From NCBI RefSeq assembly GCF_019649055.1, contig NW_026570376.1, positions 62,001 through 126,000 of the forward strand: 64,000 nt of DNA, written 5' to 3'. The DNA comes from Paramacrobiotus metropolitanus. Taxonomy: Eukaryota; Tardigrada; Eutardigrada; Parachela; Macrobiotidae. Below, in pieces: positions 1,541 to 41,844 of this stretch (its first letter is position 1; each line of letters starts with the position of its first letter). Below the pieces are notes generated by a model. That model saw only the letters and a list, made by a program, of their open reading frames with translations, did no database searches and was not told the DNA's origin. The position numbers and the translations under genes are program-made.

Positions 1541-2860
1541 ATGGATGACTCCGCGATGCAAAATGTACCGAATCCGCCGGATCTCGTCCGCTCCCGGTCG
1601 TACAGTGATTTGTCCATGCTTGATCCTGCCTTCGATGATTTAATGAGAAAAGCTGTCGAGAAGAGCTCGTATGTCAAGCGTTTCAAGCCCTTTACACGAC
1701 GGTTGGTATTGCAATCTTTCACCCGCAGCTTGCATAGCTTGTTCTGCATAGCTTTTGCAATTATGCGAGAACTATCGCACGACAAGCGTGAAAACCAGGA
1801 AGGCGAACACCAACAGCAGGTAAGTTTTATCGGTTTACCATTAAGAATATCCTCTGAAAGACAGTACCGTGCGATTATGCGAACATCAGGAATTTTCGAA
1901 CGTAAATCTGTACGAGTAACATTCACTTAACTTAAAAAAACCAGGATGCCAATGTATGGCGTGTGGTTTTAAATAAAATCATTCAGCAAAGTGCTTCTAA
2001 TAAACATCAAAGTACAGATATGTACAGTATATAAATAATTCTGTTATTCTATACGTTACTTGTTTTAATGAGCTTAATAACTTTAAAGGTAACTGCCAAC
2101 CAAAAACAAAAATAGTTACGAGCGCGGGTACACTTAGTTATAGTTAAGACCATGCAGCTTACTTAGTTGCAAGTGTGCTAGTTATATAATTATATGACTG
2201 TTATGTTATAATAATTATATGACTGCCCTTTTTCTAGCCAAGCCAACGTCCATTCCTCCTAGAGTATCTCCCTTTCGCTATCGGCGGATGTGCTGGTTTC
2301 GCCTTTGCCGATTTCGGCAATGCTGTCTTCCTGTGGTACAGTACACGCAAGATGCGCGGGCAGTGGTTTTTGTCGGCTGCCAATATGCGAGACAGAATGT
2401 GGGTGTCTGTTGGCTGGTGTGAAAGCGACTGTTTGCTACTGAACACGGGACTGTATTTAACTGTCCACGATCACCACGGTGCTGGTCGTGGGGATTGTCG
2501 AGTTCTCCGGGATTCTTCCTCTCTCTCTGGTGGCATGTCGTCCATGTTCTGTGGCACCATTACACCCTGCATGTACCGGCCCGGCTCGAACTGATATTCG
2601 TTATTCTACCATGTGCCGGCTTAGCGGTGGCGGACTTTGTTACCGTTTGGCACTGTCTCCAAGCCATTCTGCAGTTTCGACAAATTTGCCGGGTGGACTG
2701 GCACGACTTTTTTGACTTTGATTGGTCGATCATTGTTGACCAAGTGTACTACAGCGTACTGGACCTTGTCAATTGGTCGGCCATCTGGGTGGGGTATGTG
2801 ACCTTTGTACTTCTTCGCCGGAAAGTAGTGTTCTGTTCTGTTTTAATGACTAAAGGGTAA
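1541..2860 (+). pseudogene. Array copy 1: two-exon multi-pass membrane protein, damaged
   Basis: This is a member of an unrecognised tandem family. Exon A (1541-1819, 93 codons, starts MDDSAMQNV) ends in CAG before GTAAGT. Exon B starts at 2238 after TTTCTAG, in the same phase 0 as all relatives. Exon A is intact. Exon B follows the family (PFLLEYLPFAIGG, then RKMRGQWFLSAAN) to about 2465. It then has two deletions relative to copy 8, of about 11 and 5 bp, in the second hydrophobic segment. The rest (SLWWHVVHVLW to the last membrane segment LLRRKVVFC) reads in another frame. A small insertion near 2840 also replaces the usual FCVND ending. It is probably a pseudogene, although the open frames are long. 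The function is unknown. Confidence 0.75.
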
Positions 2861-2868
2861 CCCACTCG

Positions 2869-2891
2869 AGATCCGGTCGTCGACCGGATCT
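2869..2891. repeat. Short palindrome after copy 1
   Basis: Two 11-bp arms (AGATCCGGTCG and its complement) flank one base. The arm resembles the ATCCGGTTCG end of the foldback element at 1-373. It could be a solo end of that family or a chance stem-loop in the 3' flank. Confidence 0.5.
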
Positions 2892-4388: not shown

Positions 4389-4450
4389 GTCCCCAGTTTT
4401 TTCCAAGATCTCCGCTGCAGCGCACAGACATTCCGCATTCGGCACAATAC
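4389..4450 (-). pseudogene. Relic of histidyl-tRNA synthetase exon 6
   Basis: On the minus strand this stretch reads VPNAECLCAAAEILEK. The intact HARS exon at 45274-45441 has [16 protein letters not shown] in the equivalent place. The DNA similarity extends a few bases on each side only. No other part of HARS is seen nearby. It shows that HARS sequence has been copied into the array. Confidence 0.7.
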
Positions 4451-4870: not shown

Positions 4871-5121
4871 GATCTTTGAAGGATTTGTTGGTAGCTTGGA
4901 AATGCCGCTCGATTCTGCCGTTTCGTCAGATTTACGGGGCCGGCACTGATATGGACTTTATTCTGGAGAATACGATGGACCCGATAATGTGGGGTTTTTT
5001 TAAGTTTTCTGACCGTGTGCGTTATGGTGCTGCTTGAGCTTGTCGACTGATGGGTCCTTTGGATGGAATATGTTGGGTTTGTCCTTCTGCACCGAAAAGA
5101 AATCCTCAGTGTTAATGACTA
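4871..5121 (+). pseudogene. Array relic 2: 3' part of exon B
   Basis: Starts near GGATCTTTGAAGGA and reads LLVAWKCRSILPFRQIY, equivalent to LITAWQCRRAILRFQKIC of intact copies. It ends with FVLLHRKEILSVND and a stop, equivalent to FVLLRRKEVFCVND. The middle is eroded by indels and stops. No 5' part or exon A is found upstream. The ending places it in the FCVND class. Confidence 0.8.
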
Positions 5122-5127
5122 AAGACT

Positions 5128-5583: not shown

Positions 5584-5593
5584 ACTAAAGACT

Positions 5594-6720: not shown

Positions 6721-6721
6721 G

Positions 6722-6881: not shown

Positions 6882-9225
6882 ATGGATGACTCCGCGATCC
6901 AAAATGTGCAGAAGGCGCTGCACTTTAAGCGTTCTCGCTCGTACGGTGATTTTTCCACGTTTGATCCTGCTTTTGACGATGTGATGAGAAAAGCTGTGGA
7001 GAAGAGCGCGTATGCCAAGCCTTTCAAGCGCCTCATACGACGGTTGGCACTCGTGTCGTTTGCCCGTATCTTGCTAATATGGATAGTCCTTGCTGCTGAA
7101 TATATGCACGCCCAACCAGGGGATAAGCGTGAAAACCAGGAACGCGAACACCAAGAGCAGGTAATCTTTTAACGGTTTAATCTACAGATATCCTGTGAAG
7201 AGCAGTACAGATACATTGTGATTGTGCGTCGTGCTATCGTCGAGAATTCTCGTACAGATAATGCTGAGCTGCATAAGTACATTAGTTTTGATAAACTTTA
7301 AATAAAATAACAAAATAAAACTAAATAATAAACTAAACAATACTTAAAACCTACTAATTTTTGAATAAGGAGCACTCGCTTCGGATATGTGTCCCGCTGC
7401 AGCCTTCATTTAGTATGCGGTTTTAAATAAATAAATAAAGATACACCGGGTGGCCCAACAAAATGGCGGTCTCCGCTTTTGGTTTACCTCTCGGCTCTCG
7501 CGAACCACACATCATATCGTTAGCAGACTCATTCGATAGACATTCTCCCTGTTGGCTACCGAAAACAATTGTACAGTAATTTTTTCCGGCCCGTAATTCA
7601 GAAACATGTTTTAAAGAAGGATGTCAGGTAAAATGGTATGAAACTTTATTGTGTCCCGGCTCACAAAATGCAGAATCTCGTGGCTTTATTTTCCTTGCAA
7701 ACTTTTTGAAACATTTTCAACTGTTTTTTGTGGTGAATAATTTCTTTTTTCAGTAGAAAACAAGTTGCTGGCATGGCACATGCGCTGAATTAACTAATCG
7801 GTAATCGCACTTTACGACTTTCTCCAGAAATGGAAGTTTTTTATACATTTGACGTTACCAAGTAATTTTGTCACGAAATTTTTTTATGGATGACAGGAGT
7901 GACAGAAAATGCCTCTTTAACTAATAAGTGGCCACGTCATAACAAGTTTGACTAAAATTACGCGAGGCCGACGCACGTTTTTACAGCTGAAATTTCTAGA
8001 AACTCTACATTCTGGTCACGCTCCATTTGGAGCATGGTTTATTTATAAAAGAATAAGACATATTTCGTGTGATATGCGGGCTTTGCGGAAAATAGTAAAT
8101 TGTATACTTATATTTTGTGCAATGATTTTAAACGTTCATTCATTAAAATCCGACAACTGGTTGATTTTGTGCGGAGCGCGAAGCCAACATACAGTTTGAC
8201 TGCAAAATTTGTTAGTACCGTATTTCAACTAAGAACACTAATTTCTGCGGTTTTTTTCCCAAGCCGGTTAACCTTTATAGGCAGCACTCCCCTTTACTTT
8301 TTGAAGTACCCACTTTTCCAGAACTTCCGGGGCACGTGCCCCCGTTAAATTCGACACTGCCGCGAGTTTCTGAATATCATTCAGCGAAAATGGTCATGAA
8401 AAGAAGGGCATTAAGGAACAACATATTTTTGAATAAAGGTTTATGCGCTTAGTTCGTTACTTTACTAAGTTTACTTACGTGAATTTTATAAATTAGTTGC
8501 AACTACCTATTGTACCTATTGTTCTGACTCTATTCTGACTTTATCGTTCTGTGGCTGCGTTTTTTTAGTCAAGCCAACGTCCATTCCTCCTGGAGTATCT
8601 CCCTACCGCTATAACCGCATGGACTACCTTCGCTTGTGCCGGTTTTGGCAATGCTGGCTTGCTCTGGTACAATGCGCGCAAGATGCGCGGAAAGTGGTTT
8701 CTGTCAGCGGCAAAGATTGAGAACAACATGTCCATGTCTGTCGGTTGGTGGGAAAGCGAAAGCCTGCTATGGAACCTGGGCTTGAACTTACTGTTAGCCA
8801 TGCTGGCCACGGTCAGCATGGTGACGGTTGTGGGGATTGTCGAGTTACATTTTCCTGGATTGTTCATCTCGCTCTGGTGGCATGTCGTCCATGTCCTGTG
8901 GCATCATTACACTGTGCATGTACCGCCCCGGTACGAATTGCTGTTGGCTATGCTCCCGTGTGGCGGTTTCGAGGTGATCAAGCTGATTACCGTTTGGCAG
9001 TGTCGTCGAGCCATGCTGCGGTTTCAAAAAATTTGCGCCGCAGACGCGCCCAAGGAAAACGCCTTTGACTGGTCGATCATTGTGGAGGGATTGTACTATA
9101 GTGTCCTGGCTGTTGTCCATTGGTTGGTCATTTGGGTGGGGCATGCCCTTGTTCTGTTGCGCCGAAAACCATTCACGCATTCATTCATTCATTTATTCAT
9201 GTATCAGAAGCGGACGACCCGGTAA
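6882..9225 (+). CDS. Array copy 3: two-exon multi-pass membrane protein, intact, 311 aa
   Basis: Exon A is 6882-7160 (93 codons, MDDSAIQNV start) and exon B 8569-9225 (218 codons plus stop), joined in phase 0 over a 1,408-bp intron (GTAATC..TTTTTTAG). The N-terminal 60 residues are soluble, with RSRSYGDFSTFDPAFDD, then a basic KPFKRLIRRL stretch and a hydrophobic segment (about 64-82). Exon B has hydrophobic segments near FLLEYLPTAITAWTTF, LLLAMLATVSMVTVVG, LWWHVVHVLW, LLLAMLPCGG and LVIWVGHALVLL. The ending is the microsatellite-derived type (FTHSFIHLFMYQ). I know no family that matches; the number of membrane spans (five or six) and the function are inferred or unknown. There are no frame breaks. 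The TATA box is altered. Confidence 0.8.
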
Positions 9226-10839: not shown

Positions 10840-11375
10840 TTTCCCTGCAAAGCAATACCGATGCCGGCCCTGCAACAGCATAACCGATCGGCGACACTTC
10901 TAAGCCGTAAGGAAGTCGAACACCGCTAAACCGACATACGGGAAAGCTGCAAGGAAGATTTCGTGTTTCGCCGCATAAATTGTATAAGAATGGCACAATA
11001 CGTAGCAGACATGCCGCCGGCGTGAGAAGAACAATTCCGGATCACACAACTCGGCAATCCCCACGACAGTTACCCTGCTGACCGTGGCGAGTACGGTGGA
11101 CGCGAAGTAAGCGTCAGACACACTTGCACAAGCACAGACTGTGGTGAAAGTGCAACGAAGAAGTGTGCAAACGAAGAAGTGTACAAACTGTGGTGAAAAT
11201 GTGCACTTTCACCACAGTTTGCACAGTTCCACGTGCTTTGCAGTACATTCGCTGCCGACAGGAAACAGTGTCCATCCAGCTTTTTACCACAGCACCACAT
11301 CACTGAAGCACCGAATAAATCGGCAAGGGAGAGCGCAGGACAGATTCCCAAAAGGCAGCCAGCCAGGAGGAAGAG
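10840..11375 (-). pseudogene. Array relic 4: inverted exon B
   Basis: Minus-strand relic of exon B. It reads LLAGCLLGICPALSLADLFG, then FLSAANV, then (in another frame) TVLATVSRVTVVGIAEL, a degraded SRRRHVCYVLC, and YVGLAVFDFLTA. A stop replaces the conserved W before QCRR. The loop after FLSAAN is filled by a local duplication that includes a hairpin at 11184-11221. It is the only copy in reverse orientation. No exon A is seen with it. Confidence 0.75.
11184..11221. repeat. Hairpin inside inverted relic 4
   Basis: The arm CAAACTGTGGTGAAA (11184-11198) is exactly complementary to 11207-11221, with an 8-bp loop. A further partial direct copy of the arm lies at about 11127-11142. It appears to have arisen by local duplication and inversion within the relic. 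Confidence 0.7.
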
Positions 11376-12458: not shown

Positions 12459-13845
12459 ATGGCCATGGATGACTCCGCGGCCGGAAATATGCAGAATCCG
12501 CTGCATCTTATCCGTTCTCGCTCGCGATCGTGCGGTGAGTTTTCTACCTTTGATCCTGACTTTGACGATGTGATGAGAAAAGCCGTGGAGAAGAGCTCGT
12601 ATGCGAAACCTTTCAAGCGCCTAATACGGCGGTTGGTACTCGTGACTTTTGCGTGCACCCTGCCATTCTGGATGACCCTTGCCGCGCAGTTTAGGCAAGG
12701 CCAATCGGGCGAAAAAGCGTGACAATCATGAACGCGTACACCTAGAGCAGGTAATCTTATGAGGGTTTAAAATTAAGAAAACCCTCTAATAAAATCATAT
12801 AAAAAACGATCACAATTATATCAGCTGTATGCCTTCATTGACAACCCCTTTAGCATGCTTTTATGAATGAGCATACTGCATATATAAAATTAATATACGT
12901 ACTCGCATAAATTCATACTGTATAACGTTCTGTCAACCCGGTTTGTGTGTATTTCCGTTTCCGCAGCCGTCAGACTGGTAATAATAGATGTCTGGATGAA
13001 AGAAAATGTCCGGTAGCTGAATGCGATACAAAACCCAAACGATACGATGCGATACATCACTCGCGGCAAATTTGTCTGCCAATGTATGGCTAGAGTTTCT
13101 TAATATCATTTAGCAAAATGTCTCTGAAAAGAAAATAAGACATCAGGACACTTAATTACCGGTAATCAAATTAGTGCAACTTGCAACTATTCTAATTCTT
13201 TAGTTCTGCGGCTGCGTTTTTCAGTCAACCCCATGGCCATTCTTCCTGGAGTACCTCCCTACCGCTCTAGAAGGTTGCTATACCTTCGCCTTTGCCAGTT
13301 TTGGCAATGCTTGCTTCCTCTGGTGCATTGCGCGGAAGTTGCGCGGACAATGGTTCCTGTCGGCTGCGAATAACCTCAGGGACGACATTTCGGTGTCGGT
13401 CGGTTGGAGCGAAAGCAATGGCCTGCTATGGGCCATGGGATTTAATTTGATGTTGGCCATACTGGCCACGATCAGCATGGTGACGGTTGTGGGGATTATC
13501 GAGTTCAATTCTCCTGGGTTTTTCATCACGCTCTGGTGGCATGTTGGATATGTTTTGTGGCATGATTATACGGTGCATATACCGCCCCGGCTGGGGCTGC
13601 TACTCGCTATTCTCCCGTGTGCTGGTTTGGAGGTGGTCGGATTGATTACCGTTTGGCAGTGTCGCCGAGCCATTCTGCGGTTTCAGAAAATTTGCCCGGC
13701 CGACGGGCTCGACGATCTTTGGTCGTTGATTGTAGATCGAGTGTACTACACTGTACGGGATCTTGTGGATTGATCGGTCATCTGGTTGGAATACATGCCC
13801 TTTGTCTTGCTACACCGGAAAATAATGTTCTGTGTCAATGACTAG
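12459..13845 (+). pseudogene. Array copy 5: frameshift in exon A, stop before last membrane segment
   Basis: Exon A (12459-12750) follows the family, with a two-residue expansion in the RSRSRSCGEFS block. One extra A in an A-run at about 12712-12717 shifts the frame shortly before the donor. Exon B starts at 13225 and is open (STPWPFFLEYLPTALEG onward) until TGA at 13771-13773. This TGA replaces a conserved TGG just before the last membrane segment. Beyond it SVIWLEYMPFVLLHRKIMF and the FCVND ending are still readable to 13845. The first half of exon B is closest to copy 13, but the ending is the other class, so the copy looks mosaic. It is a pseudogene unless both lesions are sequence errors. 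Confidence 0.75.
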
Positions 13846-15365: not shown

Positions 15366-18300
15366 ATGGACGACTCCGCAGTCCACAGTTTGCAGGAGCC
15401 ACAGCAGTTTATCCGCTCTCGATCGTGTGGGGATTTTTCCGTGTTTGATCCTGACTTTGACGATGCGATGAGAAAAGCTGTGGAGAAGGGTTCGTTCGCC
15501 AAACGTCTGAAGCCCCTTATACGACAGCTGATACTGCTCTCTGTTGCCCGCAACCTGCTTTTATTTACATTCTTTACCATGGAATATATGCGAGCCCACT
15601 CTGGCAACAATCCTAAAAGCCAAAAAAAAGTACTTATGTTTTACAGTTATAAAATTAAATAAATATTACATATCTTTCGAAAGATTGTACGACTGCACTT
15701 CGAATTCCTGTATAGTCACATTCAATTACAGCAAGCAGTTCAAATCAGAGTTGTAAAATAGAAACGTTTCTGTTTGTGGTATAACTATTATTAATTTTTG
15801 TATTTTTACATAAACAGGTGCATACTGTGCATAGATACATATATACTGTAACAGTGGCCTATCTGGCTACTGTTCTAGTGGGGTGGCGATCAGCCTTTAC
15901 CACGATTAAACGGCTGTTGGTGTGAAAGGTGGCACGGCCGGCAACGATGCTGGCCGAGGACGCTCTTACTGATGTACACAATTACACAGGTGGCTCCGAT
16001 TGGGATGACGCTAGTTCATCCCAAGCGGTCAAACGCAACAACGTAACTCAAGGCATGTTTAATGACAAGGGAATCAAGAACACAGCAAGGTTGTAAGCAA
16101 GGGTTTCAGCAAGAGGAACAATCAAGTAGATGCAAGCTGTAGCAAGCTGAGCACAAGACTGAATTCTAGAAGTTCATGAGAAAGGAAACTAGCCGGTAAA
16201 GTGGACAAATTCATAACGCGATGGAATGATTCATCATAACTGGGCGGTCTTATCGTTCGTACAAATACTATCGCTACATCCCTCACGGTAGCGATGAGAT
16301 ATACCTGTCTCATCAAGACAACAAAACAAAAGAATAAGAAAACAGGAAAATAAAGCGTTAGGAATTAGAAAGTAGTACAACACAATGGTCCGGGATGATC
16401 CTTAACGTACGGCGTGGTGGTCCCTCACGTTGAACTACCACGAGAATCCATCCGGCGATCGGAAGGATCCTACAGTCAGGTTCCGCTGGATATGTCCGGG
16501 ATTGAGAAGGGGTCCCTCACGGTATCCGGAAATTTTCCGCGTTTATCCGCCGATGTGGGGGAGTAGTGGGGGTTTCACATAACGGCAGTGTGCCGGCGTT
16601 TGGGTGAGTTATTTTATGCGGCTGTCTCATTAACTGCCGGTAGAATGGGGACTGACGAATACTCTGGATTATGGAGACCATTGCTTTTAATTTTGATTTT
16701 AATGTCGCCGGCTTTAATTTTGTTTTCGATATCTTTGGCAATTTAACTTTCGGCACTTGTACTAAGGAAGTCCGTAGTGTCTGTGTGACATCTTCGCTTT
16801 CGACAACTGACTTTAATTTTGGCGATACCAATGCGGAGATTTCAGTGATTAATTTTTCACACTTCTTTAGTTTTTGTAAAATCGTAATGTTTTTATTTGA
16901 AACAGCGGAACAATTTGAGCAATTTTTGCTTACGCTTTTAGCAACAGGCGAATTAATATAAGGCGTTCGCGGTTTGAGAAAATCGGATGTGCGCATATTC
17001 TCTCGCTGTTCAATTAATATTTTTCTGCAACGTGACGCCGGGTCATCTGAACGATTATTGTAAAAATTAATTTCAGTTGTCGTGTAAAACACGGGAGGCT
17101 CGTACGCGCGGCCATACGGTCCTCCTTTCTGGTAACCCCAGAACCTTTTACCTTGTTCACTGCGCCAAAAGGCGTTTCCTTTCTGCCATAGCATAAGTTC
17201 TACGTAGTTATCAAATCCTGCTTGGACTTTGACTTTAATATCTTCGGGGCATATACGCGGTATCTTGTGCTTGTCATCGGGACTGGAGTTTGTACATTCT
17301 CCATAAGAATGAAAATAATCATGACATTTGGGACAGAATAATTTTCCATTTTGTAATCTGTAGCTGTCGAAGTCAACAAATTTTGGATGTATAACTTTAT
17401 CCGCGTCAGCTTTTCTGCGATTACAATATTTTGTATGATCTTGACGATACGAGTAACGACGATATCGGGTCGAGTAATTTTTGTGACTACGATCACTCTC
17501 GGGTGAGAAGTTGTGGCGTTCCTGGGAAAGGGCGCGGCGATTATCATGGCTGGAATTACTGTCGGGCGACCAATGAAGGCGTTGAGCACGGTAAACCGGC
17601 GAACGTGACCGGTGGCGGTGTGCACAAGGCGACCGATTATTACTAAAATTTCTGCGGCTGTGCGAGCGGTCAGTAGGTCTGTAATGTCGGCGTGGGCTGG
17701 GTGACCGGCGGTCATCTAAACCATCATAATGTTCTTGACGAGTACGGTGTCGCTGGACGTCGGCGTCCCTGTTGTCACTGTGACGGTTACAAGTGTCGGA
17801 GAGTTTAATTTCAGTCTGAGCTGATTGTACAGTAGTGTTTACTGCGGTGTCGGCAGCAGCTACCTTTTCAAGCACAGAACGAGCTTCAGAGAAGGTGACT
17901 GCGTGAGAAACTATAAGATATTTCCTGTATTCTGGCATATTGTAAAATACGCGGTGAAGTTCAACAAGTTTGTGCGAATCAGACATTTGAGGATCTATTT
18001 CGTTTAACAAAATTTCCAAATCAATCAGAAATGTCTTAATATCCGACCCTTTCTTGAACACCTTTTTTGATAATTCAATGCGTTTCTTTATTAAGTAACC
18101 TTCAGGGAAAAAGCGGTCAATTAGTTTGCATTTCCACTCTTCATAATTTAATTTTGAACATGTGGGCCAATTGCGCTCAAAATACTGCCGTGCTTTATCA
18201 CCAAAGTATGTAGGTAAGATACAAATTCTATCTTCTGAACTCCATCCAATTGCGTCAGCAGCTCTTTCGAATTGTTGAAAGAACGCAGTGATAATATAAT

Positions 18301-23202: not shown

Positions 23203-23776
23203 CCTTAATATTGCAGTGCACGAAAGATGCACGGGGAGTGATCTCTTTCGGCAGGAAATAGGATGCCAGGGAAGGCACATTGGTTTCTGTCAGTTGGTTT
23301 GAAAGCGACTGCCTGATACGGGCCACGGGACTGTATTTGACGTTCGTCATACTGGCCATGGACCGCATGATTTTGGTCCAAGGGATTGTCTAGTTGTATT
23401 CCACTGGATTGTGCATCTCTCCCTGGTGGCATGCTAGCTATGTATTCTGGCACTATAACACCGTGCACGTACCGCCCCCGGCTGGAATTGCTGTCGACTG
23501 TTCTTCCACGTGCCGGTTTTGGCATTCGAGGCGATCGGTTTGTTTACCGCCTGTCATTGTCGCCGAACATTTCTTCCCTTCGACAAAGTTTCCGGGCGGA
23601 CGGGCACGACGATAATGTTCCTGACGGGATAGGGTTCTCTTTTTCATGGTTTCAGTCAGTTTAATAGTACTCGTCGGCGCATGAGTGTTGGCTGTTGCTG
23701 TTCAGAAAGCGCATGCGATAGTTTTATTTTTGTCCTTCTCCGTCGGCGAGAAGTCTTCTGTGTCCTGGGTCCATGA
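23203..23776 (+). pseudogene. Array relic 7: exon B
   Basis: Recognisable pieces in shifting frames: a degraded RKMRGQWF region; SVSWFESDCLIRATGLYLTF; SLWWHASYVFWHYNTVHVPP; CHCRRTFLPFDKVSGRTGTT; and, after an insertion, LLRRREVFCV near 23730-23760. It has several frameshifts and in-frame stops, and no exon A is seen upstream. The ending is of the FCV class. No promoter block is found before it. Confidence 0.75.
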
Positions 23777-24590: not shown

Positions 24591-26220
24591 ATGGACGACT
24601 CAGCGATCCAATACGTCCCGAATCCGCTGCATATGGTCCGCTCTCGCTCTTGTAGTGATTTTTTCGCGTTTGACTCTGCTTTCGATGATGTAATGAGAAA
24701 AGCTGTGGGGAAGAGCGCATATGTCAAGCGTTTCAAGCCCCTCATACGACGGTTGGCACTGCTATCTTTCGTCCGCATCCTGCTAATATGCACACCCTTT
24801 GGCGTCGAATTTATGCGAGCCGATTCTTTCTACAAGCGTGAAAACCAGGAACCTGTACACCAAGAGCAGGTAATCGTTCAACGGTTTAAAAGAATATTCT
24901 CTGAAGGACAATACAGAGCAATTGTGCAACTATTGAGAATTTTCTAACGTTGGACTTGTACGAGTACATTTGAATTAACTTTAGAAAACAATCTCAATTA
25001 TATCAGTTGCAGTAACAGCCACTTTAGCATGCAGCTATACTTTACAGAATATACCGTAAAATCATGGTTTAAGGGTGTGCATTAGCTAAATTAGCAAGAT
25101 GTACCACTAAGACCGTACCGACAACACACTAAAAAAGGGCGGCGCCGCAAATTATTAGACGCCCCGGGGCAATAATTTCGGGGGGGGGCTTTTATTATTT
25201 CGTGACTTACGAGAGGGGGCGTTTAAAACCGCACGGGGCGTTAATTTCGGGGGGGGCGTTAATATCGGATTTTACGGTATGCGTTGAGTCTGCAAACATA
25301 TAAATTCATATAATGATAGGACTAAAAAAAACAAGTTTGTGGTTGTATTCATTTTCGAGTGAGACTGGTTGTAATATGTAACGTAACGCAGTCTAATCAA
25401 ATTTGTATGTCTATAAGGTATGGCGCGTGATTCTTAAATACAATCTTTTAGCGAAAATTATGTTTCTAAAAAGAAAAACATCTAAGTACAAAATTAAAGA
25501 ATTTGGTAATGACTTATGCTTACGTTTTCAGTTTTACTTAGTTGCAACTGTGCTGATTCTACTGTATAATTGTGCCGCTGCACGGTTTTTTAGTCAAACC
25601 AGACGCCATTCCTCCTGGAGCATCTTCCTATCGCTGTGGTCGGGTGTGTTGCCTTCTCTCTTGCCGATTTCGGCAGTGCTGTCTTCCTGTGGTATAGTGC
25701 GCGAAAGATGCGTGGTCAGTGGTTCCTGTCGGCAGCGAATATGGGCGACGGCCTGTCGGTTACGGTCGGTTGGTTCGAAAGCGACGACTTAATATTGACC
25801 CTGGGACTGTATTTGACGTCCGCCATTCTGGCCACCGTTAGCATAATGATCTCGGTGGGAATTATCGAGCTGTATTCTCCTGGATTGTTCATATCTCTCT
25901 GGTGGCATGTTGGCTATGCTCTCTGGAATTATAATACCGTGGACATACCGGACCGGGTCGAAGTGCTACTGGTTATTCTGCCCTGTGTCGGCTTAGCGGT
26001 GTTCGGCTTGATTACCGCTTGGCAGTGTCGCCGAACCATTCTGCAGTTTCGGGAAATTTGCTGGGCCGACGGCCACGACAATGATGATGCTGATCTATGG
26101 ATTGTGATTGAACGAGTTTGCTACCGTTTACTGGATCTTGTCGACTGGCTGGTCATGATGGTGGGATATATCATCTTTGTCCTGCTGCGCCGGAAAGAAG
26201 TCTTCTGTGTTAATGACTAA
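24591..26220 (+). CDS. Array copy 8: two-exon multi-pass membrane protein, intact, 301 aa
   Basis: Exon A is 24591-24869 (93 codons) and exon B 25594-26220 (208 codons plus stop), phase 0 junction, intron 724 bp with GTAATC and TTTTTTAG. It is the best intact member of the FCVND class. Order: MDDSAIQYV; RSRSCSDFFAFDSAFDD; KRFKPLIRRL; hydrophobic segment; charged KRENQEPVHQEQ; then exon B segments FLLEHLPIAVVGCVAFSL, LTSAILATVSIMISVG, LWWHVGYALW, LLVILPCVGLAVFGLITAW and LVMMVGYIIFVLLRRK. The acidic ADGHDNDDADLW stretch before the last membrane segment is a variable loop in the family. The intron contains a transposon (25052-25279). A start codon 18 bp upstream (MIVANA) is possible. Confidence 0.82.
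25052..25279. mobile_element. G-rich MITE in the intron of copy 8
   Basis: The ends are inverted repeats, TACCGTAAAATC and GATTTTACGGTA. The inside has repeated GGGGCGTTAATTTCGGGGGG-like boxes. It is 228 bp long with no coding capacity. The target duplication is ambiguous (AT or TA). The interior is related to the tracts at 460-960. Confidence 0.7.
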
Positions 26221-27045: not shown

Positions 27046-28458
27046 ATGGCCATGGATGACTCCGCCATCCGAAATGTGCAGAAGCCGCTGCACTTAAAGC
27101 GTTCTTGCTCGTATGGTGATTTTTCTACGTTTGATTCTGCGTTTGACGATGTGATGCGAAAAGCTGTGGAGAAGAGCTCGTATGCCAAGCCTTTCAAGCG
27201 CCTCGTACGACGGTTGGTACTCGTGTCTGTCGCCCGCGGCCTGCTAATATATGCAGCCCTTGCCGTCGAATATATACGATCCCAATCGGGTGATAAGCGT
27301 GAAAACCAGGAACGCGAACATCAAGAGCAGGTAATCTTTTAACGGTTTGAAATTGGGGGTATCCTCTGAAGGACTTTACAGTTTGATTCTGTGACCACCG
27401 GGAGTTCTCTAAAACTGAAGGGCTTGAACTGTATGAGGACATTAATTGATAAACTTTAAAGCATTAGTAATACTAATAGTTTTTCTTACCAAAAGTCCTT
27501 GGTACGTATATATTCCATATTAAAAAACGATTACAGTAATTATTTAGCTGCAGCAGCTGTATATATCAGCTGCAGCCTTCATAAACGACCGGATGTGGAT
27601 GTACGTTAACGGAATACGATAAAGAACCCACTCGCGACAAACTTGTATGCCAATGTATGGCGCGAGTTTCTGAATATTATCATTTACCGAAAAGGTTTCT
27701 AAAAAGCCATTAGAGCAGAAGATTTGTAAATAAATGTTTGTGCGTACACCACTTAGCTAAATTTGTGCCGATCTGTTAGTTCTATCTGAACCTATATTTC
27801 TGTGGCTGCTTTCTAGTCAAGCCAACATTCATTCCTGCTGGGGTATCTCTCTACCGCTATAACCGGATTTACTTCCTTCGCCTGCGCCGGTTTTGGCAAT
27901 ACTTGCTTCCTCTGGTACTGTGTGCGCAAGATGCGCGGTCAGTGGTTCCTGTCGGCAGCAAAGACTGAGGACGGCATGTCAATGCCTGTCGGATGGGTCG
28001 AGAGCAATGGCATGCTATGGAACCTGAGCCTGAATTTGACGCTCGCCGTTCTGGCCACGGTCAGCATGGTGATAGTTGTGGGGATTGTCGAGTTACATTT
28101 GCCTGGATTCTTCATCTCGCTCTGGTGGCTTGTCGCCCATATTCTGTGGCACCACTACATCCTGTACGTACCGCACCGGTTCGAATTGCTGCTAGTTGTT
28201 CTCCCGTGTGGCGGTTTGGAGGTGATCGGGTTGATTACTGCGTGGCAGTGTCGGCGAGCGATTCTGCGGTTTCGAAAAATTTGCTCGGCCGACGGGCCTG
28301 ACAATAACAGCGTTGATTGGTGGTCGATCATTGCGGAGCGAGTGTGCTACACTGTCCTGGAACTTGTCCATTGGTCGGTCATCTGGGTGGGACATGTCCT
28401 TGTTCTGTTGCGGTGGAAAGTATTCACGCATTCATTTATTCATTTAATCATGTGTTAG
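27046..28458 (+). CDS. Array copy 9: two-exon multi-pass membrane protein, intact, about 308 aa
   Basis: Exon A is 27046-27330 (MAMDDSAIRNV; 95 codons if the first ATG is used) and exon B 27817-28458 (213 codons plus stop), phase 0, intron 486 bp. The first ATG is preferred because copy 13 keeps only that one (MALDDSA). N-terminal block SYGDFSTFDSAFDD, then KPFKRLVRRL and a hydrophobic ARGLLIYAALAVEYI. Exon B: FLLGYLSTAITGFTSF, LTLAVLATVSMVIVVG, LWWLVAHILW, LLVVLPCGGLEVIGLITAW and SVIWVGHVLVLL. The tail is KVFTHSFIHLIMC and a stop, the microsatellite type. The exon B half and its 3' flank are repeated as copy 10. The function is unknown. Confidence 0.83.
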
Positions 28459-28738
28459 GAGCGGACAACCCGGTAAACAGGTCTTTAAGGCCTGGTCGGA
28501 CTTATGTGTTAACGATAAAGAACAACCAGCTCGAGAACGCTACCTGGTGTGACGATGCCTCGTACCGACCCGACTTCCTACGTCTTCACACAATTCTACA
28601 AACTAATTTCTTAACTTTATCGTCTAAGGTTTCTCGGTTTAATGCATAATTGTACATTTTGCAGTCAGATTCTAAAAAAGTTTTATGCGCGATGGATGTT
28701 GTACAAGTCTTTCTCGAAAATGCATACGATATTTTAAC

Positions 28739-28754
28739 GTACCGCAAGCGGTAC
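28739..28754. promoter_or_regulatory. Palindrome GTACCGCAAGCGGTAC downstream of copy 9
   Basis: The same 16-bp palindrome as after copy 3, 281 bp behind the stop. It is repeated at 30110-30125 in the duplicate. Confidence 0.6.
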
Positions 28755-29198
28755 AGTTATTGGACTCAATTAATCATTAAAAACTACTTACCGAACACTG
28801 GCGAACAGCACTCAGTGGGCACTGGCTTACCCTGGCTAGTTTGGGTTATCATATTGTTATTGGTTTGAGTGTTTGACTGCAGATAGCTAGCCATTTTCGA
28901 AAGACCTTACCTAACTTGAGCTGCCCGTTTGGCATGGATAAAGCTCTTTCGGGTGTTCGTCTCGAAAGTGAGATGACTCCATGATGCCCACCTAATCATA
29001 TGCTTGTTGTTAAAAATGAGTTGTTAATTTTAATTTAGTCGGTCTTGTATTATTGTTCTATGGAAGTTTCTGAAAAGGTTTCTAAAAGCCATTAGAGCAG
29101 AAGATTTGTAAATAAATGTTTGTGCGTACACCACTTAGCTAAATTTGTGCCGGTCTGTTAGTTCTATCTGAACCTATATTTCTGTGGCTGCTTTCTAG

Positions 29199-29860
29199 TC
29201 AAGCCAACATTCATTCCTGCTGGGGTATCTCTTCACCGCTATAACCGATTTACTTCCTTCGCCTGCGCCGGTTTTGGCAATACTTGTTTTCTCTGGTACT
29301 GTGCGCAAGATGCGCGGTCAGTGGTTCCTGTCGGCAGCAAAGACTGAGGACGGCATGTCAATGCCTGTCGGATGGGTCGAGAGCAATGGCATGCTATGGA
29401 ACCTGAGCCTGAATTTGACGCTCGCCGTTCTGGCCACGGTCAGCATGGTGATAGTTGTGGGGATTGTCGAGTTACATTTGCCTGGATTCTTCATCTCGCT
29501 CTGGTGGCTTGTCGCCCATATTCTGTGGCACCACTACATCCTGTACGTACCGCACCGGTTCGAATTGCTGCTAGTTGTTCTCCCGTGTGGCGGTTTGGAG
29601 GTGATCGGGTTGATTACTGCGTGGCAGTGTCGGCGAGCGATTCTGCGGTTTCGAAAATTTGCTCGGCCGACGGGCTGACAATAACAGCGTTGATTGGTGG
29701 TCGATCATTGCGGAGCGAGTGTGCTACACTGTCCTGAACTTGTCCATTGGTCGGTCATCTGGGTGGACATGTCCTTGTTCTGTTGCGGTGGAAAGTATTC
29801 ACGCATTCATTTATTCATTTAATCATGTGTTAGGAGCGGACAACCCGGTAAACAGGTCTT
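29199..29860 (+). pseudogene. Array copy 10: exon B duplicate of copy 9 with indels
   Basis: Exon B text of copy 9 without an exon A. A one-base loss near 29249 and a further loss near 29300 leave a short out-of-frame stretch. The middle is in frame again (MRGQWFLSAAKTEDG to CRRAILRFRK). Single-base losses near 29655, 29677, 29735 and 29766 then break the last third. As it stands it cannot encode the full exon. All breaks are homopolymer shortenings. Confidence 0.8.
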
Positions 29861-30109
29861 TAAGGCCTGGTCGGACTTATGTGTTAACGATAAAGAACAA
29901 CCAGCTCGAGAACGCTACCTTGTGTGACGATGCCTCGTACCGACCCGACTTCCTACGTCTTCACACAATTCTACAAACTAATTTCTTAACTTTATCGTCT
30001 AAGGTTTCTCGTTTAATGCATAATTGTTTTTGCAGTCAGATTCTAAAAAAGTTTTATGCGCGATGGATGTTGTACAAGTCTTTCTCGAAAATGCATACGA
30101 TATTTTAAC

Positions 30110-30125
30110 GTACCGCAAGCGGTAC
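30110..30125. promoter_or_regulatory. Palindrome GTACCGCAAGCGGTAC in the duplicated unit
   Basis: Copy of 28739-28754 carried by the duplication. Confidence 0.6.
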
Positions 30126-30435
30126 AGTTATTGGACTCAATCATCAAAAACTACTTACCGAACACTGGCGAACAGCACTCAGTGGGCTTAACACTGCTAG
30201 TTTGGGTTATCATATTGTTATTGGTTTGAGTGTTTGACTGCAGATAGCTAGCCATTTTCGAAAGACCTTACCTAACTTGAGCTGCCCGTTTGGCATGGAT
30301 AAAGCTCTTTCGGGTGTTCGTCTCGGAAAGTGAGATGACTCCATGATGCCCACCTAATCATATGCTTGTTGTTAAAAATGAGTTGTTAATTTTAATTTAG
30401 TCGGTCTTGTATTATTGTTCTATGGAAGTTTCTGA

Positions 30436-33159: not shown

Positions 33160-34007
33160 GCCATGAATTTGTCGCATTTCGGACGACAGAGGCATGGTCC
33201 TCACGGATGAGTCTACCAACTGATACGCGCCGAAACCCCGGCATTTTATCCGTTCTCGCTCGTGTTTCCAGGTCTGATCCTGTCTTTGACGATGTGATGA
33301 GAAGAGCTCTCGAAAGGAACTCGTACGCAAAGCACTGATGCCCTTATACGACAGCTGGCACTGCTCTCTTTTAACCGCAACCTGCTTATATTTGAAGGTA
33401 GATCACTAGATCTTTTGTCTTCAAATATGCGAGATCGTTCTGATTCTAGCGATGAACAAGAAAACCCGGAACGCGAAGAATGAATTTAAAGCACACTTCC
33501 TCTGGGTTTCACTGAAAATCGAGACGAGGTGTGCTTTAAAGTCAAAAATTACAGCATATCCTACAAAGGCACTGTGCGACCAATGGAGAGTTTTACTGAG
33601 CAATGAGCATTATCTAAAATGGAATAACAGTACTCTTCCATTCCTCCTGGAGCCTCTTCCTGTCTTATTTGGAGCCGGTCTTGCAGTGCTCTTTGCCGAT
33701 TTATTCAGTGCTTCGGCGATGTGGCGCTGTGTGCGGAAGATGCACGAGCCTCGTTTCCTATCGGCAGCGAATATATGGAATACTGCAGGTTGTTATGAAC
33801 GTGTGTTCATTCAAGCATGCCTTAGAATTTATTTCGCGTTCACCATTACCGCCACGGTCAGCATGATAATGGTTGTGGGGATGGTCGAGTTATATGTCCC
33901 ATGATTTATCTTGGCTTTCTAGCTGGCGGCAGGTCCTCCATGTATTGCAGTGAAACACGAAACGTTCTTAGCTACCCTCCCGTATGTCGGTTTAGCCGTG
34001 TTCGGCA
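33160..34007 (+). pseudogene. Array relic 11: exon A and exon B
   Basis: The exon A remnant (33160-33395) keeps RSDPVFDDVMRRALERNSYAK and a broken basic/hydrophobic part. A first-codon region is not recognisable. The exon B remnant (33636-34007) reads PFLLEPLPVLFGAGLAVLFA, then SASAMWRCVRKMHEPRFLSAANI, then TATVSMIMVVGMVELYVP, then a stop. It ends abruptly at GTGTTCGGCAC, where a transposon fragment begins. It has several stops and frameshifts. Confidence 0.8.
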
Positions 34008-35939: not shown

Positions 35940-37697
35940 ATGGCCATGGATGACTTAGCGATCCGAAATGTACAGAATCCGTTGCATCTTATCCGTTCTC
36001 GCTCGTGGGTGGATTTTTCCACGTTTGATCCTGCCTTCGACGATGTGATGCGAAAAGCTGTGGAGAAGAGCTCATATGCCAAGCCTTTCAAGCGCCTCAT
36101 ACGCCGGTTGGTACTCGTGTATTTCGCCCGCAGCCTGCTTTTCTGGACGGCCCTGATCGTCAAAGCAATCAATGCAAGCCCAATCGGGTGATAAGCGTCA
36201 TGAAAACCAGGCACGCGAACACCAAGAGCAGGTAATCTTTTAACGGTTTAAAATTATCTTCTGAAAGACAGTGCAGTATCATTCATAACTAGATCATAGA
36301 GCAATGGCCGATGTGATACCGCCTCGATTTAGATTCGGTATTCGCCGTACGGTTCAACATCCAGAAAACGTGCACCTGCGCATTCTGATCTTTTTCGTTC
36401 CTTTTTTCCCGCGTTAATCAAGAATATCGTCACGCACTCATTTATTCACATATCTTAGTACTCACAAGTTTCAACCAGTTCTTCCTTCAAAAAAATTATT
36501 GCATGGCAAAAGGCAAAAACTAAAGAGAGGAAAGAAATTTTCTTGGGACAATCTTTTCTGTACCGCGAAAATTGTTTGTGGGTTCGTTTTGAAAGTTGTA
36601 AATAGACGTCTAGTGTCTACGAACTACTGCATATAGATTAAAGAAATATATTTTATGGCCCAAGTATAATTATCCCTTCCGAGTTCCGAGCGAGACTGAG
36701 TGGATGTACGTACTGTAACTGAATGCTATGCAGAACCTACTCGCGGCAAATTTGTAAGCACAATGTATAAGTATGATGTGATTTCTGAATATGATTAACA
36801 GCGAAAAGGTTTCTGAAAAGAATGGCGTCTGCGTACAATATTTTTAAATAAATTTTTATGCGTATGTTACTTGATGAGTTAAATTAGTGCAACTTGCAAC
36901 TATTTTGATTCTATAGTTCTGCCATAGTGTAATTACATTATACATGTATAGCTGACTACATATAGTACAGTATATTACGTGTACATGTACGAGTATATAT
37001 CTGGTAGTAGACTCAGGTTCTCGGTTGCTTTTTCTAGTCAAGCCGACGTCCATTCCTCTTGGAGTATATCCCTACCGTTATAGATGCATGTACCATATTT
37101 GCCCTTTTCGGTCTTAACAATGCTGGCTTCCTCTGGTACATTACGCGAAAGTTACGCGGACAGTGGTTCCTATTGGCAGGGAATATGGAGGACGACATGG
37201 TGGTGTCTGTCGGTTGGGCCGTAAGTAATGCCTGCTATGGGCCCTGGGAGTTACTTTGACCGTGGCCACCCTGGCCACGCTCAGCATGGTGACGGTTGTG
37301 GGGATTATCGAGTTCTATTCTCCTGGATTGTGCATCACGCTCTGGTGGCATGTTGGCTATGCATCGTGGCATAACTCCACGGCGCACACACCACCCCGGC
37401 TGGGGCTGCTCCTGGCAATCCTCCCCGTGTGCTGGTTTGGACGTGATCGGGTTGATTACCGCGTGGCAGTGTCGCCGAGCCATTCTACGGTTTCAGAAAG
37501 TTTGCTCGGCCGAGGGGCTTCACAATAATGACTCGGATTGGCCCTACATTGTAGAGCGAGTGTACTACACTGTCCTGGATCTTGTCCAGTGGTCGGTCAT
37601 TTGGGTGGGACATGTGGTCTTTGTTCTGTTGCGCCGGAAAGCATTCGTCCATTCATTTATTCATTCAATCATGTATCAGGAGCAGCCAGCCCGGTAA
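35940..37697 (+). pseudogene. Array copy 12: complete but frame-broken
   Basis: Exon A (35940-36231) is normal up to IVKA. A net 4-bp insertion compared with copy 13 then shifts the frame and gives a stop at 36189. The KRHENQ..EHQEQ end is still readable in the next frame up to the donor. Exon B (37038-37697) has a one-base loss near 37229 and a one-base gain near 37428. Outside these it follows the family (FLLEYIPTVIDACTIF, LATLSMVTVVGIIEFYSPGL, VIGLITAWQCRRAILRFQ, SVIWVGHVVFVLLRRK) to the microsatellite tail and stop at 37697. The three lesions suggest a pseudogene, but two are in short homopolymers. Confidence 0.75.
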
Positions 37698-37984
37698 ACA
37701 GGTCTTCAATGTCTGGCCGGACTTCTGGGTTAACGTCTCAACGACTAAAGAACAACCAGCTCCAACATCCCCGTATGTTTCGATGCCTTTTTACCAATCC
37801 GACTGCCCGCGCCTTAAAACAACAATTCTACAGTACTCTGAACAAACTAATTTCTCAGCCTTACAGTCTAACGTTTTATGCTTGATGCATATCTGGCTGT
37901 AATGTACATTTTGTAGTTATATTCTAGAAAAACCTTATGCGCGATCTTTAAGTCTTTCCCTAAATACATGCGGTAGTTTACCGG

Positions 37985-38519: not shown

Positions 38520-38527
38520 CGCAGAAT

Positions 38528-39740
38528 ACTACGCAAAATGATTCACATTTAAACATAAAAAAAAACAACCAAAATCGTTAGCGCTGTCAGTCATTTTAGA
38601 ACGCATACCCAAAGTACGTGCCCAAAACAGCAGCAGCATTTCCCTTTACAACATCTAGACTAAATCTCTGCTTTAAAAATGCGGTAGTTCAAGCTTGATA
38701 TCGATGGTTTTCGAAGGAAACTATCGAATTTGTATGTCACAGTTCCCTGACATGTTGAATTTGATGACTTCTATACTTCTGTAAAATAGCTGAAAATTTG
38801 CGGTTTGAATTCGACAAGTTGCCGACAACTACTGACCTGTGGTATCGGTCACTTTGCCGAGTTGTCATGACCTTTCCTGTGTGTTACGCTATTGGAAAAA
38901 AAGTTATTCGGATTAGACTAATTGGAGATGTAGTGTCGCCTGTAACATTTCTGGTAAATTTTTTATATAGAAAAATGTGTATATTCTTGCGGTTTTGTTT
39001 GAGATACTCGTACACGTAATAACGATAATACTCGTATTTTGGTGTTTGTACTCGCATTTCTCTATCTGTACAGTATTTTTATTGTATCACTATAATTCGT
39101 TTCTAAACAGAACAACACTTGTGCAACATAATTTCTCTTATTTCCGGGCAGGTACACCCTCAGCGACATGCCTCGTCCAACGCGGCGTCAACAGCGCCTT
39201 CTCCGCATCTAGTTCGACTCTGTAGGAACGGACAGTGGAGAATGGTTTACCGCCACCGTGGAAAAACGTTTAAGACGTTGACAAGGTTTTGGTTGGCGTA
39301 GACTTGGCAATACGCATCGGGACTTCAAATTTGGCGCCGGAGGTTGTAGAAGACGCTGAATTAAGTACTCCCGATTGCAGTATTGCTACTATAAAAATGT
39401 CGTGCGGCAACCGGTTTCCGTCGTACTTGGTTGATGCCGGTGTGGCAGAATCACTAGAATGTATGTAAAAGACAATTAAACCTGATCGTCTCATGCTCTA
39501 GTCGCTTCATGTAGCAACAGCGCAAAACAGATGAAATGGTTTATCATAGTCTCGACTCTCCAGTGAGCACATTGTCAATGGCATTGATTATTAGCTCGCA
39601 TTGCGCTAATAATACATCGTCAGCTCAGCGAGTGCATTAGCGGCATTCTGGAACATGGGTATTCCGTGAGTACAGTATGAGATAATATTATAGTACCGTA
39701 TGTTGTACTATGTACATGGTACAACTACGACATTCTCGGC
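38528..39740. other. Intergenic between copies 12 and 13
   Basis: No gene is seen. 39140-39220 (GCAGGTACACCCTCAGCGAC, then CAACGCGGCGTCAACAGCGC) matches the region just downstream of HARS at about 42710-42790. 39250-39460 is the upstream module also seen at 6300 and 35340. Confidence 0.55.
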
Positions 39741-39883
39741 TCAGCCAGTGTTATTGAGTTGTCGTTGGCTGCTGCGGTAAACCGTTGTTGCACAAACCGT
39801 TCTTCGGTTTTAAATTTTATGTTATAAAATTTCTACCAAATCTAAGTATTTACCAGTAGTTCTGAAGCCAAGCTGTAGCGATC
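39741..39883 (+). promoter_or_regulatory. Conserved promoter block, array copy 13
   Basis: CTCAGCCAGTGTTATTGAG box, an altered stem-loop (AAACCGTTGTTGCACAAACC with a second AACCG..CGGTT stem) and TATA-like TTATAAAA at 39822-39829, 55-62 bp before the ATG. Confidence 0.6.
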
Positions 39884-41844
39884 ATGGCCCTGGATGACTC
39901 TGCGATCCGAAAGGTGCAGAATCCGTTGCATCTTATCCGTTCTCGCTCGTGTAGTGATTTGCATCTTATCCGTTCTCGCTCGTGTAGTGATTTTTCCACG
40001 TTTGATCCTGCCTTTGACGATGTGATGAGAAAAGCTGTGGAGAAGAGCTCTTCTGCCAAGCCTATCAAGCGCCTCATACGACGGTTGGTACTCGTGTATT
40101 TCGCCCGCGGCCTGCTGATATGTACAGTCCTTGTCGTCAAATCTATGCAATCCCAATCGGGCGATAAGCGTCATGAAAATAAGGGACGCGAACACCAAGA
40201 GCAGGTAATCCTTTAACGGCTTAAAATTATCCTCTGAAGGACAGTACAGTATGATTGCCGTCGTAATTTACTAATTTGTCGACCATCGACGATTCTCTAA
40301 TGTTGTACCGGATGAATACATTTTATAAACTTTAATTATTAAAAAACGGGTAAGTTTATCAGGAGCACTCGCAACGTATTGTACTATTATGTTTACTCTT
40401 ATATTTTGTTTTAAAATAATCACAAAATCAGAATCATATCAGCTGCAGCCTTCTTTAACAACCCCAAGGCTCTTAGCATGCGGTTATGTATACATATATA
40501 TACGAGGGCGCTTACAGAAATTTTTGCTTAGCATTGGCATCACCAAAAAATCATAAAATTAGGAACTATTTTTTAAAAACTGTATTATTCATCACTAGAT
40601 AATAGGGCAGTGGCCGATGTGATACCGCCTCGTAGGACCATGGAAACGATAGCAAAAGAACTAAAACTTTAGGAAGGAACGAGTCGGAGTTTCGCTGCAG
40701 CTCCTCTCTGATGAGCGTGGGGATGATTCATTTTTGATTTCCTATTCTCCGTGTACGGTTCAACATCCAGAAAACGTGCACCCGCACTATTTGATCGTTT
40801 TCGTTCCTTTTTTTCAACGTTAATCAAGAATATCTTCACGCAGTCATTTATTCACATATCTTTGTACCGTACAAGTTAATTTCAGCCATTTACTATGTTA
40901 TATGTACTTCAAAAACATTTTCGCGTGACAAAAGGCAAAAAATAAAGAGGGGAAACGAATTTTCGTAGGACGATCTTTTCTTACTGCGTAAATTGTTTGT
41001 GGGTTAATTTTGAGAGTTAGGGAATATTCAATAGACGTCTAGGCGGTATATAGACTAAAGAAATATGTTTTATGGCACAAATATAGTTTTCCCGGCCGAG
41101 TGTTCTGCGATTCGACAGTTCTGCGTTTGCTTTTTTTAGCCAAGCCAACGTCCATTCTTTTTGGAGTATCTGTCTACCTTTATAGACGCATGTACTACCT
41201 TCGCCTTTGCCGGTTTCGGGAATGCTTGCTTCCTCTGCTACGTTACGCGAAAATTGCGCGGGAAATGGTTCCTGTTGGCAGCGAATATGGAGGACGACAT
41301 GTCGGTGTCTGTCGCCTGGAGCGAAAGCAATGGCCTGCTATGGGCCATGGGATTTAATTTGTTGCTGGCCATACTGGCCACGGTCAGCGTAGTGACGGTT
41401 GTGGGGACTGTTGAGTTCTATTCTCCTGGATTGTTCTTCAAGCTCTGGTGGCTTACTGGCTATGTTTTGTGGTACAATGCCACGGTGGGTATACCGCCCT
41501 GGCTGGGACCGCTACTGATTATTCCCCCGGGGGCCTGTTTGGACGTGATCGGGCTGATTACCACGTGGCAGTGTCGCCGAGCCATTCTGCGGTTTCAAAA
41601 AATTTGCTCGGCCGACGGGCCGAGGATAATGACGACGATGACGACGACGACGACGATAATGACGATTGGCCCTTCATTGTAGAGCATGTGCACTACACTG
41701 TGTGGCAAATGTGCCATTGTCCTGGAAATTGTCCATTGGTCGGCCCGTTGCGTGGGACACGTGGTCTTTGTTCTGTTGCGCCGCAAACCATTCACGCATT
41801 CATTCATTCATTTATTCATGTATCAGGAACGGGCAACCCGGTAA
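39884..41844 (+). pseudogene. Array copy 13: nearest to HARS, truncated before the last membrane segment
   Basis: Exon A (39884-40204, 107 codons) starts MALDDSA, so only the first of the two family ATGs is present. It contains an exact 33-bp tandem duplication (LHLIRSRSCSD twice, 39926-39991). Exon B starts at 41140 and is open to TAG at 41680-41682. Family order is kept through LITTWQCRRAILRFQKICSADG. A one-base shift then puts a GAC/GAT microsatellite out of frame; in the other frame it would encode a poly-Asp loop before WPFIVEHVHYTV. A 17-bp insertion near 41700 restores the frame, and the last membrane segment and tail (HSFIHLFMYQERATR) can be read to the stop at 41844. As written, the product of about 288 residues lacks that segment. 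Confidence 0.72.

What the first reader, a model, noticed from the sequence alone, without database searches (positions are those of the whole stretch)
1541..41844. Tandem array of an unrecognised two-exon membrane-protein family next to HARS
Thirteen copies or relics within 40 kb share one design: exon A (MDDSA start, a soluble conserved block, one hydrophobic segment), a phase-0 intron, and exon B with four or five hydrophobic segments. Conserved parts include RSRS..DFSTFDPAFDDVMRKA, RKMRGQWFLSAAN, SLWWHV and ITAWQCRRAILRF. Four copies are open. I know no named family with these motifs. Such local expansion with many dead copies is typical of fast-evolving, lineage-specific genes (receptors, defence or secretory proteins); the role here is inference only.
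Basis: partly seen in the sequence, partly recalled or inferred. Interest (0 to 1): 0.85.

Follow-up and report, generated by a model that had tools for sequence, protein, structure and literature searches.

The report
Tardigrade array of unknown membrane proteins
A stretch of what is almost certainly a water-bear (tardigrade) chromosome carries a long row of related two-exon genes for a membrane protein that matched no family we searched; many are intact and under selection, and some that look dead are probably sequencing errors.

Summary
The window has 13 exon-B and 9 exon-A loci. They are the downstream end of a larger array: 30 exon-B and 23 exon-A loci in about 104 kb of contig C156. Relatives also sit on C1, C5, C6, C29 and C68. 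Assembly statistics point to the tardigrade Paramacrobiotus metropolitanus. Of 21 pairs tried (picked because each exon was in one piece), 18 join at an in-phase GT-AG intron into frames of 301-334 aa; copy 6 (294 aa) was joined by hand. Four joined frames are in the window (copies 3, 6, 8, 9). dN/dS is 0.30-0.74 in the five closest pairs, and most array copies tested share a TATA-like upstream block. No convincing match was found in Pfam, NCBIfam or PDB, while gustatory-receptor-like genes of the same genome do ring. One claim needs correcting: 'many dead copies' is partly assembly error. The only HARS match found, next door, leaves frame just before GLDYY, and exon A is split at 6 of 10 loci in C156 but at 0 of 10 in the matching contig. 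Copy 10 is probably an artefact. Function is inferred: most likely receptor-like surface proteins. Expression was not testable.

The parts
1541..1819 (+). copy 1 exon A (open)
2238..2857 (+). copy 1 exon B, frame-broken here; the matching locus on contig C355 (94.5% identical DNA) is open. Ends approximate
4882..5119 (+). relic of exon B (short, diverged)
6882..7160 (+). copy 3 exon A (open)
8569..9225 (+). copy 3 exon B (open); usual tail replaced by residues read from an ATTC-type repeat
10903..11357 (-). relic of exon B on the reverse strand
12465..12750 (+). copy 5 exon A (labelled c4 in my scripts); 1-nt insertion in an A run
13228..13842 (+). copy 5 exon B; one in-frame TGA. Start approximate
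15366..15629 (+). copy 6 exon A (open)
21017..21637 (+). copy 6 exon B (open); the 5.4-kb intron holds a long antisense ORF (16517-18382)
23265..23590 (+). relic of exon B
24591..24869 (+). copy 8 exon A (open)
25594..26220 (+). copy 8 exon B (open), ends LLRRKEVFCVND
27046..27330 (+). copy 9 exon A (open)
27817..28458 (+). copy 9 exon B (open)
29072..30435 (+). 'copy 10': head-to-tail repeat of 27689-29073 with 9 mismatches and 15 gap openings (14 in this copy); probable assembly artefact
33203..34006 (+). copy 11, relic of exons A and B
35940..36231 (+). copy 12 exon A, 4-nt insertion relative to copy 9
37038..37700 (+). copy 12 exon B, four 1-nt indels relative to copy 3. Ends approximate
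39884..40204 (+). copy 13 exon A, open, with an internal duplication of LHLIRSRSCSD
41140..41844 (+). copy 13 exon B, with 24-nt GAC-repeat and 19-nt insertions relative to copy 3. Ends approximate

Best explanation
It is a live, lineage-specific multigene family evolving by birth and death in a tandem array of a tardigrade. Each gene makes a protein of about 300-330 residues from two exons. Read from the sequence: exon A encodes a conserved, basic N-terminal segment (RSRSxGDFSTFDPAFDDVMRKA..KRFKPLIRxL) and the first membrane segment; exon B encodes three further clear membrane segments and a weaker C-terminal one, which in 11 of 19 models (and copy 6) ends in a tail like LLRRKEVFC(V/I)ND. Loop charges favour the N-terminus inside. 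Inferred: the variable membrane core (segments 2-3) and fourth loop bind or sense differing ligands, while the constant N-terminal piece, and the tail where it is kept, dock to a common cytosolic partner, so the array works as a repertoire of surface receptors or channel subunits. My confidence in gene structure, family identity and the tandem-array reading is about 0.9; in the receptor-like role about 0.4. The confidence below is for the whole statement.
For: 18 of 21 tried pairs join in phase at GT-AG, plus copy 6. dN/dS is below 1 in every listed pair with dS under 0.9 and 0.30-0.74 in the five closest (one of these five pairs uses the C42_43k model with the shifted donor). Mean pairwise identity is 0.62 in the N-terminal segment against 0.37-0.48 over exon B, with segments 2, 3 and loop 4 lowest. 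Loop K+R means 10.7 / 4.2 / 4.7 / 1.0 / 7.2 fit N-inside. A 34-nt TATA-like block: 34 of 46 profile hits lie within 140 nt upstream of an exon A, 12 elsewhere, none in three one-strand mononucleotide shuffles; the profile was trained on 22 of these starts. Wider relatives at C5, C68, C6 and C29 by protein search; in the second C5 gene, C68 and C6 the sequence shows the same phase-0 GT-AG intron between a one-segment exon and a long exon.
Against: No expression data. No structure model. No hit to any receptor family. The number of membrane segments (4 or 5) is not settled and is not the 7 of known chemoreceptors. dN/dS shows relaxed constraint, not positive selection. The tail is not universal: copies 3 and 9 have lost it and five models (C42_54k, C42_14k, C156_46k, C355_34k, C1_4174k) have another one.
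Confidence: 0.4

Rival explanations
1. A reproductive (sperm or male-biased) membrane protein family. The species has separate sexes, and about 2,000 male-biased genes concentrate at 29 genomic loci.
For: PMC11191345 (passages seen): strongly male-biased genes are enriched in 325 bins on 29 scaffolds. Fast-evolving tandem families are common among reproductive proteins (recalled).
Against: I could not see which scaffolds or genes are male-biased (supplements not available). Nothing in the sequence points to gonads.
Confidence: 0.25
2. A stress or anhydrobiosis membrane protein family, a membrane counterpart of the expanded tardigrade CAHS and SAHS families.
For: Tardigrade families with a stress role are expanded in several species (PMC8277472, PMC5531438; passages seen).
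Against: CAHS and SAHS are heat-soluble proteins, and the passages I saw do not mention this family. High divergence between copies would be unusual for a dosage-driven protectant (inference).
Confidence: 0.14
3. A very divergent branch of the insect-type gustatory/odorant receptor superfamily (7tm_6/7tm_7).
For: Multi-pass, tandem, fast-evolving; N-terminus inside.
Against: In this genome 36 matches at E <= 0.001 ring for 7tm_7 and 6 for 7tm_6, but neither family is among the four that any of 15 family members matched at E <= 1. Six of the 7tm_7 genes, singly or as a profile, score 12.9-21.4 against the family, within the range of shuffled controls (maxima 17.2-21.3) and against 116.9 for the family's own C5 relative. 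The 7tm_7 matches cover most of the model in one long frame, unlike the A/B plan.
Confidence: 0.07
4. A largely dead array, a decaying relic of an older family.
For: Truncated relics in the window; 5 of 12 matched exon-B loci upstream are split on both contigs.
Against: Nineteen in-phase GT-AG joins that are open (18 plus copy 6), dN/dS below 1, a shared upstream block; many breaks are present on one contig and absent from the other, 98-99% identical one.
Confidence: 0.06
5. Exons A and B belong to separate genes.
For: Four exon-B loci in the window have no exon A beside them.
Against: All 9 exon-A loci in the window are followed by an exon B on the same strand; phase and splice sites agree down to about 27% protein identity, also on C1 and C5.
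Confidence: 0.03

Closest known systems
Insect/arthropod gustatory and odorant receptors (Pfam 7tm_7, 7tm_6)
   Same: Multi-pass, intracellular N-terminus, tandem arrays, fast turnover (general features recalled).
   Different: No sequence or profile match; 4-5 rather than 7 segments by hydropathy; different exon plan.
Nematode serpentine chemoreceptors (Srx)
   Same: Large lineage-specific multi-pass families (recalled); one member of 15 scored E = 0.013.
   Different: Not significant for 15 members scanned; no other member matched.
Tardigrade expanded families CAHS and SAHS
   Same: Lineage-specific expansion in eutardigrades (PMC8277472, PMC5531438; passages).
   Different: Those are heat-soluble proteins; this one is multi-pass membrane by hydropathy.

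Membership tests
Gustatory/odorant receptor superfamily (7tm_6, 7tm_7) | Match to the Pfam models | tested here: not met
   Not among the families matched by any of 15 members (15 of the 19 models) at E <= 1, while the same genome gives 36 matches for 7tm_7 and 6 for 7tm_6
Gustatory/odorant receptor superfamily (7tm_6, 7tm_7) | Seven membrane helices | tested here: inconclusive
   Hydropathy gives 4 clear segments plus one weak; no structure model
Gustatory/odorant receptor superfamily (7tm_6, 7tm_7) | Profile similarity to the genome's own 7tm_7 genes | tested here: not met
   Six of 36 compared: scores 12.9-21.4, within the range of shuffled controls
Nematode Srx chemoreceptors | Significant match to the Pfam model | tested here: not met
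   1 of 15 members, E = 0.013
Tetraspanin, claudin, innexin | Match to the Pfam models | tested here: not met
   Not among the four families that any of 15 members matched at E <= 1
Birth-and-death tandem multigene family (kind of system) | Array of paralogues with open genes and relics, and constraint on open copies | tested here: met
Birth-and-death tandem multigene family (kind of system) | Expression of the open copies | not testable with these tools

The most novel reading that the evidence does not exclude
A previously undescribed tardigrade superfamily of multi-pass surface receptors: an old dispersed tier (C5, C68, C6, C29) and one young exploded array (C42/C156/C355), forming a second chemosensory or recognition repertoire beside the gustatory-receptor-like genes.
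Probability: 0.25. Interest if true: 0.8.

Novelty: new variant of a known kind. Interest (0 to 1): 0.5.

Why it matters
If true, tardigrades have a sizeable membrane gene family with no named relatives, which expression data for the species could place at once (transcriptomes of both sexes and of dried animals are reported in PMC11191345 and PMC8277472). It also warns that pseudogene counts in a nanopore-based assembly can be wrong: here the neighbouring essential gene is out of frame too.

Tried and rejected
Insect origin: I first read the 7tm_6 matches as showing an insect. I dropped this when assembly size, GC and longest scaffold fitted Paramacrobiotus sp. TYO. The glutathione-transferase and lipocalin searches did not help to name the species.

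Known-family searches: Pfam on 3 proteins, then on 15 of the 19 models, then on 3 wider relatives (one search gave one weak hit, UPF0300, E 0.016); NCBIfam on 2; PDB by single protein and by profile (best E 1.7 and 0.079). PHROGs and PADLOC were not searched. Viral contigs with the alignment: 43 pattern matches, none a relative. Prokaryote genome contigs with copy 8: 22 pattern matches, none a relative. The histidyl-tRNA-synthetase model gave no match in the genome, although the gene is there; a direct query with one exon gave exactly one place.

Link to the C68/C6/C29 group: weak to the array itself (score 24.3, probability 5%, against a shuffled maximum of 17.2), stronger to C5_635k (37.6, probability 71%, no shuffle run for this pair). 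The shared phase-0 intron speaks for it. I take it as probable, not proven.

Literature: searches list no paper on this family, but the lists were capped (1 of 1, 15 of 40, 15 of 634, 12 of 138, 12 of 41,757 and 8 of 9 shown). I saw passages only of PMC5531438, PMC8277472 and PMC11191345. Preprints and most subscription papers are outside the library.
Full report
What is there. The window is G000:C156:62001-126000. Exon-A and exon-B profiles grown from the window's open copies find 13 exon-B and 9 exon-A loci in the window, and 30 exon-B and 23 exon-A loci in C156:1-104 kb. Two further gene loci lie on C42 (64-65 and 73-74 kb) and one on C355 (19-20 kb). Genome-wide, one exon-B query gives 59 matches and one exon-A query 43; fragments and second copies of the same locus on other contigs are included.

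Which organism. The genome is 169,799,020 bases in 533 contigs, and C1 is 4,484,719 bases. Hara et al. 2021 (PMC8277472; passages seen) give 170,483,395 bases, 684 scaffolds, longest 4,484,941 and GC 43.46% for Paramacrobiotus sp. TYO, by nanopore plus Illumina. PMC11191345 (passages) gives a 170-Mbp genome for P. metropolitanus; that the two are one species is recalled. I take the species as nearly certain, but this rests on assembly statistics, not on a sequence match.

Gene model. I tried 21 A/B pairs by script, chosen because each exon came as one piece. Eighteen join at a phase-0 GT-AG intron into an open frame of 301-334 aa; with C42_43k the introns span 246-2200 nt. C156_1k and C156_23k did not join. 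C42_43k was held open by moving its donor by hand; the matching exon A on C156 has the in-phase GT donor. The set includes second copies of the same locus on another contig. Copy 6 joins likewise (294 aa) across 5.4 kb that hold a long antisense ORF. The same plan and phase hold for the diverged C5_635k gene, 27% identical to copy 8, and by reading the sequence for C5_632k, C68 and C6.

Topology. Averaged hydropathy (19 models plus C5_632k with a guessed junction) gives segments near residues 54-75, 103-127, 165-190 and 216-236 of copy 8, and a weaker one near 272-292 that carries charges in most members. K+R counts favour the N-terminus, loop 2 and loop 4 inside. The RRK after the last segment would fit four helices with both ends inside better than five; this is open.

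Selection. By Nei-Gojobori counts, the five pairs with dS under 0.35 give dN/dS 0.54, 0.74, 0.30, 0.59 and 0.50; all listed pairs with dS under 0.9 are below 1. Three of the five are C156/C355 counterparts of one locus. Pooled pN/pS is lowest in the N-terminal segment (0.49) and highest in segment 2 (0.87); the pairs are not independent, and no test for positive selection at single sites was run.

Shared upstream block. A 34-nt profile (consensus TATAAAATTTCTTCAAAATCCGAGTAGTTCTTAA) trained on 22 exon-A starts gives 46 hits over 12 bits in the 218 kb fetched. Of these, 34 lie within 140 nt upstream of an exon A and 12 elsewhere; three mononucleotide shuffles (one strand) gave none. Training and test overlap, and 2 of the 22 training sequences scored below the threshold (copy 12 and C42_49k). 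C355_19k, C1 and C5 were left out of the training.

Dead copies. C156:57-40511 matches C42 reversed; about 32 of 40 kb are 98-99% identical, the rest 91-96% or without a listed match. In one 8.6-kb stretch there are 12 mismatches but 32 gap openings, and 22 of 26 one-base indels lie in homopolymers of 3 or more, while such runs hold 19% of the bases there. At 10 matched exon-A loci, 6 are split in C156 and 0 in C42. At 12 matched exon-B loci (one relic pair left out), 8 are split in C156 and 7 in C42; 7 are whole in at least one contig, 5 in neither (read by me). Control: one HARS exon gives one place in the genome. It aligns to cytoplasmic histidyl-tRNA synthetase chains and then leaves frame before GLDYY, which appears in another frame. 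I read this as a consensus error; a true defect is not excluded. Copy 10 begins where its source ends and has 9 mismatches and 15 gap openings over 1386 columns, 14 of them in copy 10. Against this: copy 5 has an in-frame TGA, copy 12 a 4-nt insertion, copy 13 larger insertions, copy 1 deletions of 11 and 5 nt, and four loci are short, diverged relics.

Family. No convincing match was found: Pfam on 15 of 19 models, best Srx E 0.013 in one; NCBIfam on two; PDB. Relatives inside the genome: C5_635k, C5_632k, C68, C6, C29 and C67. hhalign scores of the array profile are 116.9 to C5_635k, 42.5 to C5_632k and 24.3 to C68 (probabilities 99, 84 and 5%); the maxima of 40 column shuffles each are 21.3, 19.3 and 17.2. 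Six 7tm_7 genes of the same genome score 12.9-21.4 against the array, so the array-C68 score alone is only slightly above unrelated membrane proteins. The tree of 20 proteins groups copies 3 and 9 (100/99) and, less firmly, the C355 counterpart of copy 1 with them (91/95); copy 6 lies with the upstream copies (95/99).

Conclusion. A real, unnamed, rapidly evolving tardigrade membrane-protein family with many usable genes. The mechanism is inferred: a repertoire of surface receptors or channel subunits with a constant cytosolic N-terminal piece. Reproductive and stress roles remain open because no expression data could be seen.

Noticed in passing
window 44216-44424 (- strand): The one HARS exon match found in the genome goes out of frame just before the GLDYY motif; an indicator of consensus errors in this contig.
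   Followed up: yes
window 8569-9225, 27817-28458: Copies 3 and 9 have lost the usual KEVFCVND tail to an ATTC-type repeat that is read through (THSFIH).
   Followed up: partly
window 16517-18382 (- strand): 621-aa ORF inside the intron of copy 6; no Pfam match at E <= 0.001; looks like a retroelement gag-type protein to me (recalled, untested).
   Followed up: partly
window 60656-62011 (- strand): 451-aa ORF without a Pfam match at E <= 0.001; resembles the C-terminal part of a non-LTR reverse transcriptase protein (recalled, untested).
   Followed up: partly
G000:C355 against C156:41.7-65.3 kb: C355 matches C156 in direct order at 10-14 and 26-28 kb but inverted at 32-37 kb: a haplotype inversion or a misassembly.
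   Followed up: no
G000 genome-wide, e.g. L038-L043: 36 matches to the gustatory-receptor model 7tm_7 at E <= 0.001 (111 of 129 candidates scored), mostly in single frames of 335-449 aa; a tardigrade GR-like repertoire. One literature search (8 of 9 listed) showed no paper on it.
   Followed up: partly
G000:C50, L003-L010: Eight glutathione-transferase matches on one contig; the one compared with PDB is closest to zeta-class (maleylacetoacetate isomerase) chains.
   Followed up: no
window 49690-52144, 55203-55478, 58837-60236: Neighbours past HARS: Nrap domains (NOL6, name recalled), an astacin and a Put_Phosphatase (PHOSPHO type, recalled).
   Followed up: yes
G000:C42 against C156, array gene at C42:41.7-43.2 kb / C156:17.9-19.4 kb: The same gene is broken differently in the two contigs: the exon-A donor is out of phase on C42 and in phase on C156, while exon B is split on C156 and whole on C42.
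   Followed up: yes
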